Below, piece after piece: positions 38,938-40,218 of a DNA stretch of 64,000 nucleotides; within the stretch, counting starts at the first letter, position 1; every line of letters begins with the position of its first letter. The notes under the pieces were generated by a model. It had not been told where the DNA came from. It worked only from the letters and a program-made list of their open reading frames with translations, and did not search any database. The stretch is from an uncultured Bacteroidales bacterium (lineage in GTDB: Bacteria > Bacteroidota > Bacteroidia > Bacteroidales > UBA932), in assembly GCA_944325435.1 (NCBI GenBank), contig CALVAC010000009.1:1-64000 (forward strand). Reading direction: 5' to 3'. The position numbers and the translations under genes are program-made.

Positions 38938-40020
38938 CTAACGGATATATTTAGAGATTTCCTGGCCTATCTCATCGCCTCTGAGGTTCCTCTTGAGAAT
39001 GGTCCCATCCGGCCCGAAAAGGATGATATGCGGAATGCCTTCTATACCGTACAGTTCCGTAGGGACCTGGCCGGCATTGATGATCTGCTTCCAGTTCACC
39101 CCGTAGACCTTTGCCGTATCCTTTGTGGCTTCCGGGCGATCCCACACGGCAACGCTCAGGACCTCGAGACCTTTTCTGTGGTACTCGTCATAGACAGCCT
39201 TGATGTTAGGAATCTCAGCCTTGCATGGCCCGCACCATGATGCCCAGAAATCCACAAGGACATACTTGCCCTTGCCTACATAGTCGGAGAACTTCACCGT
39301 CTTCCCGTCCGAGTCCTCCACTGTGAAGTCCTTGAACATCTTGCCTTCAGCCGTCTCTATCCTTGTCTCTATCAGGTTCTTCATGGCAACGATCTCATCG
39401 CTTGCCTGGAGTTCCGGAGACAGGGTGCCGATCAGGGAGTCCACCTGGACATCATCCTCCAGAAGAGCCGCAAGGTTCGAAAGGGCAGCCACCGCAATCA
39501 CATTATCGCTGTTCTGCGACAGCGCTTCCCTTGAGAAATCGATGAACTCCGCAGTGAACCTGTCATAATTCGCAATCATAAGAGAGTCCATGGCCTCGGC
39601 GCTTATGTCTGTCTTAGCCCTTATGTTCTGTACCTCTGTCATGAAATTCTCCTGGATGGACACGGACTTCTCCGAGAATTCCGTGAACCTTGTGTTCACC
39701 GACCCTGAAAAGGCAGACTTCACGGACGGTTCAGCACCGAGGGTGACATCCAGCTTTGTGCCATCAGGGACAAAACGTACCTGATACGGGCCTGCGGAAA
39801 CGGAACCCATCACTGTCGGATCCACAGGAAGCTCGACAGAGAACTTGCCATCCGTCACAGCCAGAAGGGTGTCAATCCCGTGTGACTCTATCACCACATT
39901 GACTTCATCAAGTCCTTCTTCGGAAACAGTTCCGACAAGCCTTGTGGTATCGGAAACGCCGGAGCAGGCAGCCGCGAGCATAGCAGCACCGGCTGCAGCC
40001 ATAATTGTTCTTGTCTTCAT
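38938..40020 (-). CDS. TlpA-like thiol-disulfide oxidoreductase lipoprotein
   Basis: 360 residues from ATG 40020 (longer starts to 40053 exist). Lipoprotein signal ending in AAACS (Cys19), an N-terminal DUF4369-like beta domain (about 20-110), a helical linker, then a thioredoxin/TlpA domain (about 225-360) with the active site FWASWCGPCK and the cis-Pro loop GIPHIILFGPDG. Such proteins reduce or isomerise disulfides on the periplasmic or outer-membrane side. Two tandem promoter modules lie 31-182 bases upstream of its start. Confidence 0.9.
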   Translation of the reverse strand: MKTRTIMAAAGAAMLAAACSGVSDTTRLVGTVSEEGLDEVNVVIESHGIDTLLAVTDGKFSVELPVDPTVMGSVSAGPYQVRFVPDGTKLDVTLGAEPSVKSAFSGSVNTRFTEFSEKSVSIQENFMTEVQNIRAKTDISAEAMDSLMIANYDRFTAEFIDFSREALSQNSDNVIAVAALSNLAALLEDDVQVDSLIGTLSPELQASDEIVAMKNLIETRIETAEGKMFKDFTVEDSDGKTVKFSDYVGKGKYVLVDFWASWCGPCKAEIPNIKAVYDEYHRKGLEVLSVAVWDRPEATKDTAKVYGVNWKQIINAGQVPTELYGIEGIPHIILFGPDGTILKRNLRGDEIGQEISKYIR

Positions 40021-40050: not shown

Positions 40051-40082
40051 CAAATATACTCAGAAGCCGAGAGCAGAACAAA
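40051..40082 (-). promoter_or_regulatory. Proximal promoter of tlpA-like/uvrC unit, with palindrome over -33
   Basis: On the minus strand TTTG (40079-40082), 20-base spacer, TATATTTG (40051-40058). The -33 element lies inside the palindrome AACAAATAAATTTGTT (40077-40092). The spacer contains GCTCTCGGCTTCTGAG, shared with the distal copy. Confidence 0.7.
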
Positions 40083-40125
40083 TTTATTTGTTATGCCGAG
40101 GCGTGAACAGTATATATGGCGAAGC

Positions 40126-40155
40126 CAAATATCTCAGAAGCCGAGAGCAATGCAA
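40126..40155 (-). promoter_or_regulatory. Distal promoter-like copy upstream of tlpA-like gene
   Basis: On the minus strand TTG (40153-40155), 19-base spacer, GATATTTG (40126-40133, one mismatch to TAnnTTTG). The -33 element lies inside a different palindrome, TGCAAGTAAACTTGCA (40151-40166). The spacer again holds GCTCTCGGCTTCTGAG. Confidence 0.55.
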
Positions 40156-40218
40156 GTTTACTTGCAATTGCCGAGGCGATACAGTATATGTGGCCGCCCG
40201 GCCAAATATATGAATTTT

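What the first reader, a model, noticed from the sequence alone, without database searches (positions are those of the whole stretch)
40051..40210. Tandem palindromic promoter modules with compensatory changes
Two 75-77 bp copies each hold a -7 box, the shared spacer GCTCTCGGCTTCTGAG, and a 16-base palindrome over the -33 element. The palindromes differ (AACAAATAAATTTGTT against TGCAAGTAAACTTGCA) but each is exactly self-complementary, so the arms changed together. That implies selection for the symmetry, either as a dimeric regulator site or as a hairpin. A third -7-like box at 40203-40210 hints at an expandable array. Similar GCTCTCGGCTT promoters exist in Bacteroidales as far as I recall, so this may be a mobile or repeated promoter family.
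Basis: partly seen in the sequence, partly recalled or inferred. Interest (0 to 1): 0.65.

Follow-up and report, generated by a model that had tools for sequence, protein, structure and literature searches.

The report
Mobile hairpin that inserts into promoters
A 75-letter folded DNA element, present in many copies in this gut bacterium and its relatives, repeatedly inserts at the exact start-signal box of gene promoters and appears to supply a replacement upstream half, so that it could rewire genes without silencing them; no such family was found in the databases and papers searched here.

Summary
The window (minus strand) holds two tandem units of 74 and 77 bp that end at a -7 box about 30 bp before the start codon of a thioredoxin-like lipoprotein gene. 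Each unit is a nested hairpin whose inner stem differs in sequence between copies but stays paired. It belongs to a repeat family: 16 full modules in this Cryptobacteroides genome (control 0), 6-27 in 17 other congeners, and relatives in Alistipes, Prevotella, Barnesiella and Muribaculum. Arms covary strongly with almost no G-U intermediates, which favours a DNA hairpin over an RNA.

The key result is comparative. In a near-identical species pair, three promoters differ by a clean 75-76-bp insertion whose right edge is exactly the native TATATTTG -7 box; a fourth differs by one extra unit. Between this genome and its nearest relative, 12 of 13 promoters with an array in one species lack it in the other but keep a -7-type box. 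The units carry TTTG/CTTG exactly 20 nt before the box, which 13 of 15 empty promoters lack. So this is a mobile, promoter-homing element that builds head-to-tail arrays. Mobility and targeting are well supported; promoter output is inferred and the mobilising enzyme is unknown (a Y1/RAYT transposase is not supported).

The parts
40051..40058 (-). intact -7 box TATATTTG: the inferred native promoter box and insertion target
   Evidence: the nearest relative G181 has TATCTTTGCGG at the orthologous gene without the element
40059..40132 (-). proximal unit (74 bp), ATATTTGGCTTCGCC...GGCTTCTGAG
   Evidence: family alignment
40079..40082 (-). -33 element TTTG, 20 nt before the -7 box
40064..40074 (-). 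conserved GCTCTCGGCTT, proximal
40077..40092 (-). inner palindrome AACAAATAAATTTGTT, proximal (7-bp arms, AA centre)
40094..40100 (-). conserved CTCGGCA, proximal
40110..40115 (-). B* (ATATAC), 5' side of the outer stem, complementary to the -7 box region
40117..40127 (-). small hairpin TGGCTTCGCCA, proximal
40133..40209 (-). distal unit (77 bp), ATATTTGGCCGGGCGGCC...GGCTTCTGAG
40126..40132 (-). internal box ATATTTG at the unit junction, lacking the first T of TAnnTTTG
40138..40148 (-). conserved GCTCTCGGCTT, distal
40151..40166 (-). inner palindrome TGCAAGTAAACTTGCA, distal (7-bp arms, AA centre)
40169..40175 (-). conserved CTCGGCA, distal
40184..40189 (-). B* (ATATAC), distal
40191..40204 (-). 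small hairpin TGGCCGGGCGGCCA, distal
40203..40210 (-). left (outer) box TATATTTG bounding the array
38938..40020 (-). downstream gene: AhpC/TSA thioredoxin-like (TlpA-type) lipoprotein, ATG at 40020 (alternative ATG 40026)

Best explanation
Each unit is a copy of a non-autonomous mobile DNA element of about 75 bp. It inserts immediately 5' of the -7 box (TAnnTTTG) of ordinary housekeeping-sigma promoters, always in the same orientation. The insertion pushes the native upstream region 75 bp away, but the element's 3' half supplies TTTG or CTTG exactly 20 nt before the native -7 box, so the promoter stays complete (inferred to be active). Because a target box is left at the gene-proximal end, further copies insert there and build head-to-tail arrays; the older, internal boxes then decay. 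The unit folds as DNA into an outer stem (B* with the -7 box), an internal loop of conserved CTCGGC and TCTCGGCTT, and an inner stem whose sequence is free but whose pairing is kept, most likely because a still unidentified recombinase or transposase recognises the folded single strand. Shown: family, covariation, insertion sites, spacing, box decay. Inferred: promoter output, hairpin recognition, the enzyme.
For: Clean filled/empty sites in the near-identical pair G278/G315: net inserts of 75, 76 and 75 bp, right flank resuming exactly at TATATTTG. At PrmA one species has one unit and the other two, the extra unit differing in sequence, so it is not simple slippage. Between this genome and G181, 12 of 13 array loci lack the element in the other species yet keep a TAnnTTTG-type box upstream of the start, at the same spacing with homologous flanks in several (RecJ, NfeD, TrpS). 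-33 TTTG (62) or CTTG (28) at exactly 20 nt in 90 of 96 such units; only 2 of 15 empty promoters have TTTG 18-22 nt upstream. Intact box in 90 of 109 terminal but 18 of 68 internal positions. Inner-stem covariation: 38 and 25 doubly changed cells against shuffled means of 12.5 and 6.5, 0 of 500 shuffles reaching the score, and only 5 and 0 singly changed standard pairs; arm swaps agree. Type-1 units face a gene start in 70 of 96 arrays even with a crude ORF caller.
Against: No mobilising enzyme was found. The left junction is not clean: 1-3 nt next to the box changed in all three filled sites, so an exact 8-bp target duplication is not proven. Precise loss in G315 instead of gain in G278 is not formally excluded. 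Outer-stem covariation is significant only outside the Cryptobacteroides types, where the sequence is almost fixed. Promoter activity was not measured. Other subfamilies (type 2, Prevotella type) do not carry a recognisable -7 box and sit in other contexts.
Confidence: 0.75

Rival explanations
1. No dedicated enzyme: the promoter halves spread by gene conversion, template switching or illegitimate recombination between promoters that share TATATTTG, helped by the hairpin, and arrays grow by unequal exchange.
For: Donor-like GCG replaces the native AAC left of the box at GPDH. Half units that consist only of the 3' arm, spacer and -7 box exist. No Y1 transposase in this genome. Several arrays sit at contig ends, as near-identical repeats would.
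Against: Net inserts of nearly constant length (75, 76, 75 bp) with both flanks kept look like insertion of a defined unit. The shared homology is only about 8 bp. Strong maintenance of the arms in 141 distinct inner sequences suggests that something recognises the fold.
Confidence: 0.3
2. REP or REPIN family mobilised by a RAYT/IS200-IS605 (Y1) transposase.
For: Short imperfect palindromes in intergenic regions; a 5' foot sequence complementary to the end box resembles IS608 guide/cleavage pairing (resemblance recalled from general knowledge).
Against: PF01797 is absent from this genome and from 15 of the 18 genomes with at least 6 copies, although present in 219 of 300 genomes of the genus. 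The GTAG or CGTC tag that marks REPs (PMC3733652) is absent from the window units.
Confidence: 0.06
3. The palindromes are binding sites of a dimeric regulator and the array is an operator region.
For: Symmetric sites overlapping the -33 element.
Against: Arm sequence and length vary freely (141 distinct inner segments) while only complementarity is kept; downstream genes are unrelated housekeeping genes.
Confidence: 0.04
4. The unit acts as a structured RNA (leader, riboswitch-like or processing signal).
For: Folds well as RNA (z -3.9 and -5.1). Type-2 and Prevotella-type copies lie in transcribed-looking positions, some just before tRNA genes.
Against: Type-1 units lie upstream of the -7 box and so outside the transcript of the terminal promoter. 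No Rfam match. Almost no G-U intermediates among compensated pairs.
Confidence: 0.08

Closest known systems
REP/REPIN elements and RAYT transposases (PMC3733652)
   Same: Small intergenic palindromic repeats that spread without coding capacity; can form arrays
   Different: No GTAG/CGTC tag, no associated Y1 gene, insertion precisely at -7 boxes, carries a promoter half, head-to-tail arrays of 75 bp
Correia elements of Neisseria (general knowledge, not tested)
   Same: Short non-autonomous repeats that carry promoter sequence and lie upstream of genes
   Different: Correia elements have 26-bp terminal inverted repeats and TA duplications and are not known to home on the promoter box
IS200/IS605 transposon ends (general knowledge)
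   Same: Hairpin with a 5' foot sequence that base-pairs with the sequence at the element's end and target
   Different: No Y1 transposase found; 75-bp unit with one main hairpin; sequence at both ends is a promoter box
Integron attC sites (general knowledge)
   Same: Recognition through folded structure with covarying stems; repeated insertion at one place gives head-to-tail arrays
   Different: No cassette genes, no attC core consensus noticed, integrase not searched
Bacteroides sigma-ABfr promoters (PMC7366714)
   Same: -7 TAnnTTTG and -33 TTTG
   Different: Here the -33 half is brought in by a repeated, inserting unit

Membership tests
sigma-ABfr-type Bacteroidales promoter | -7 box TAnnTTTG | tested here: met
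   window 40051-40058; 90 of 109 terminal positions
sigma-ABfr-type Bacteroidales promoter | TTTG near -33 | tested here: met
   TTTG in 62 and CTTG in 28 of 96 units at exactly 20 nt
sigma-ABfr-type Bacteroidales promoter | transcript start about 7 nt downstream | not testable with these tools
   no transcript data
REP/REPIN (RAYT) | GTAG or CGTC tag at one end of the palindrome (PMC3733652) | tested here: not met
   absent from both window units
REP/REPIN (RAYT) | Y1 transposase (PF01797) in the genome | tested here: not met
   0 in this genome; 3 of 18 element-rich congeners
MITE / non-autonomous mobile element | filled and empty sites at orthologous loci | tested here: met
   three clean pairs in G278/G315
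MITE / non-autonomous mobile element | terminal inverted repeats | tested here: not met
   unit ends ATATTTGG and CTGAG/CTGCG are not inverted repeats; the paired outer stem lies inside and includes the target box
MITE / non-autonomous mobile element | target-site duplication | tested here: inconclusive
   TATATTTG at both ends in two filled sites and ATATTTG/TATATTTG in the third, but 1-3 nt at the left junction differ from the empty site
MITE / non-autonomous mobile element | a parent transposase sharing the ends | not tested
   only PF01797 was searched
Known structured RNA | match to an Rfam family | tested here: not met
Integron attC | IntI-type integrase and attC core | not tested
   no genome search left; considered only by analogy

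The most novel reading that the evidence does not exclude
A mobile element that homes on promoters while they are being melted: a single-stranded hairpin unit, guided by a foot sequence (B*) complementary to the -7 box, is integrated into the strand that RNA polymerase opens at the -7 element, and it carries its own -33 half so that the host promoter survives. This would be a bacterial counterpart of promoter-targeting elements known from eukaryotes.
Probability: 0.2. Interest if true: 0.92.

Novelty: new variant of a known kind. Interest (0 to 1): 0.72.

Why it matters
If right, a large group of uncultured gut bacteria carries a mobile element that specifically swaps the upstream half of core promoters. 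That would be a ready source of expression variation in housekeeping genes between close species. It also shows how a parasite can insert in the most sensitive part of a gene without destroying it. The empty and filled promoter pairs listed here can be put on reporters directly, and the search for the enzyme is now well defined.

Tried and rejected
RAYT/Y1 transposase as mobiliser: rejected by absence here and in 15 of 18 carriers. Known RNA family: none. Plasmid copies: none. Viral contigs: a few contigs carry other-type copies, none of the type ending in CTNNGTATATTTG. Paper search for the motif strings gave only unrelated hits. Exact GCTCTCGGCTT matches in most other congeners turned out to be coding coincidences, so counts rely on the full module. 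The ValS locus in the G000/G181 pair was too diverged to place the left junction. A regulator site was considered and rejected because the arms are free in sequence.

Full report
Check of the observation. On the minus strand the window reads left box TATATTTG, distal unit (77 bp), proximal unit (74 bp), -7 box TATATTTG, then about 30 nt to the ATG of an AhpC/TSA thioredoxin-like lipoprotein gene. The palindromes are two perfectly complementary 7-nt arms around AA, and the distal unit's box has lost the first T of TAnnTTTG. In the genome (G000, 2.76 Mb, 98% complete) GCTCTCGGCTTC occurs 20 times against 1 for the reversed control; the full module CTCGGCA-N12-26-GCTCTCGGC occurs 16 times against 0. 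Copies are single or in arrays of two or three at 74-80 bp, nearly all pointing at a gene start.

Family and range. A scan of one genome per species finds the same module in Bacteroidales named Cryptobacteroides, Alistipes, Prevotella, Muribaculum, Barnesiella, Xylanibacter and Paludibacteraceae, while hits in other phyla are coding coincidences without palindromes. In that genus 18 of 300 genomes hold 6-27 copies and most hold none. In a sample of 393 Bacteroidales genomes 8 of 206 genera have a match to the exact pattern, a few of which are coding coincidences. No Rfam family matches and no paper held contains the motif in this sense.

Structure. Both strands of the proximal unit fold as DNA and RNA into an outer stem (ATATAC with GTATAT of the -7 box), GCC-GGC, GCA-TGC and the inner stem, plus a separate small hairpin (z -3.2 to -5.1). 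Inner-arm complementarity of 139 distinct segments is 0.66, against 0.47 (sd 0.012) when 3' arms are swapped between equal-length elements. Pair counts on two gap-free alignments show 91% and 92% of cells paired, 38 and 25 cells changed on both sides (shuffled means 12.5 and 6.5), 0 of 500 shuffles reaching the covariation score, and only 5 and 0 cells changed on one side. The scarcity of G-U steps argues for pairing at the DNA level (inference). The outer stem covaries among the non-Cryptobacteroides types (5.57 against 3.98, sd 0.14: AAGATAC, AAGATAG, ATATAAG, CGTTTTC and others with their complements) but is nearly fixed within type 1. The small hairpin also keeps its pairing (2.4 against 1.7).

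Promoter anatomy. In type-1 units with an intact box, TTTG (62) or CTTG (28) lies exactly 20 nt before TAnnTTTG in 90 of 96 cases, although arm sequences vary. This matches the -33/-7 promoter of Bacteroides (PMC7366714). The terminal box is intact in 90 of 109 positions, the internal boxes in only 18 of 68, mostly through loss of one base. Even with a crude ORF caller, 70 of 96 type-1 arrays face a start codon within 160 bp.

Orthologous promoters. The nearest available species (G181; the window gene is 79% identical at protein level) carries about 15 copies, but elsewhere. At seven loci with arrays in G000 (TlpA-like, ValS, DUF2723, M3 peptidase, RecJ, CdaA, DUF1573), G181 has no intact element, with a decayed half unit at CdaA; at six loci with arrays in G181 (NfeD, NIF-like, TM2, TrpS, GNAT, LolD), G000 has none. 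In each the element-free species has a TAnnTTTG-type box upstream of the start. In several it is at the same spacing in homologous sequence: RecJ TATATTTGCAGACTATG against TATATTTGCAGAATATG; NfeD TATATTTGTCCCTATG against TATATTTGTCCTTATG.

Filled and empty sites. The pair G278/G315 (flanks 90-99% identical) resolves the event. Fucosidase: empty ATTATCTC-TATATTTG-AAATC, filled ATTATCTT-TATATTTG-[element]-TATATTTG-AAATC, net 75 bp. GPDH: CAGTTTAAC-TATATTTG-TATCC becomes CAGTTTGCG-TATATTTG-[element]-TATATTTG-TATCC, net 76 bp. Third locus: AAGGCG-TATATTTG-TAACC becomes AAGGCTC-ATATTTG-[element]-TATATTTG-TAACC, net 75 bp. The right flank always resumes at the box, and the left flank changes by 1-3 nt. 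At PrmA one species has one unit and the other two, with sequence differences between the units. This explains head-to-tail arrays as repeated insertion at the gene-proximal box. Among 15 empty promoters only 2 have TTTG 18-22 nt before the box, so the element would supply a -33 that most targets lack.

Mechanism and what is missing. The unit behaves as a non-autonomous mobile element aimed at -7 boxes that replaces the -33 half. The enzyme is unknown. Y1 transposases are absent from this genome and from 15 of 18 carriers although present in 219 of 300 congeners. Either another recombinase reads the folded strand, or recombination between promoters spreads the unit. The complementarity of B* to the box resembles guide/cleavage pairing in IS200/IS605 elements, and the -7 box is the part of a promoter that polymerase melts; both are analogies, not tests.

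Other types. Type 2 (end box GTTTATTTTA) lies mostly in reverse orientation right after stop codons and before the next start, and Prevotella-type copies lie before tRNA genes. The conserved hairpin thus serves several insertion contexts, and -7 targeting is shown only for type 1.

Limits. All genomes compared are draft assemblies, largely from metagenomes. Presence/absence rests on single genomes per species. Gain is favoured over precise loss because most of the genus lacks the element, but was not proven. No expression data were available.

Noticed in passing
L282, L301, L305, L278, L329, L334 and others: A second subfamily (type 2) with the same hairpin core but end box GTTTATTTTA (TAAAATAAAC on the other strand), mostly in reverse orientation directly after stop codons and 20-60 bp before the next start codon; several subfamilies coexist in one genome (G102, G251, G284).
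   Followed up: partly
L092, L119, L207, L210: Hairpin copies of the Prevotella type directly upstream of tRNA genes.
   Followed up: no
L455, L282, L368: Another repeat in Cryptobacteroides with ends like TTAACGTCAGT...ACTGACGTTAA, also upstream of genes; a type-2 hairpin directly abuts it in L282.
   Followed up: no
L438, L440, L444 (IMGVR_UViG_3300021255_004723, 42 kb): Three copies of a related hairpin with box CGATATTTG on one contig classed as viral.
   Followed up: no
L107, L117, L284 and related copies: In some copies the inner palindrome is turned round (central TT instead of AA), as if the hairpin had been flipped.
   Followed up: no
L085, L128, L145, L150: Some Prevotella-type copies seem to lie inside open reading frames, which recalls Rickettsia palindromic elements; not checked for in-frame insertion.
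   Followed up: no
L014 (G000) and L318 (G278): The intergenic region between ValS and a DUF3467-like gene carries the element in both species but facing opposite genes, suggesting independent insertions.
   Followed up: partly
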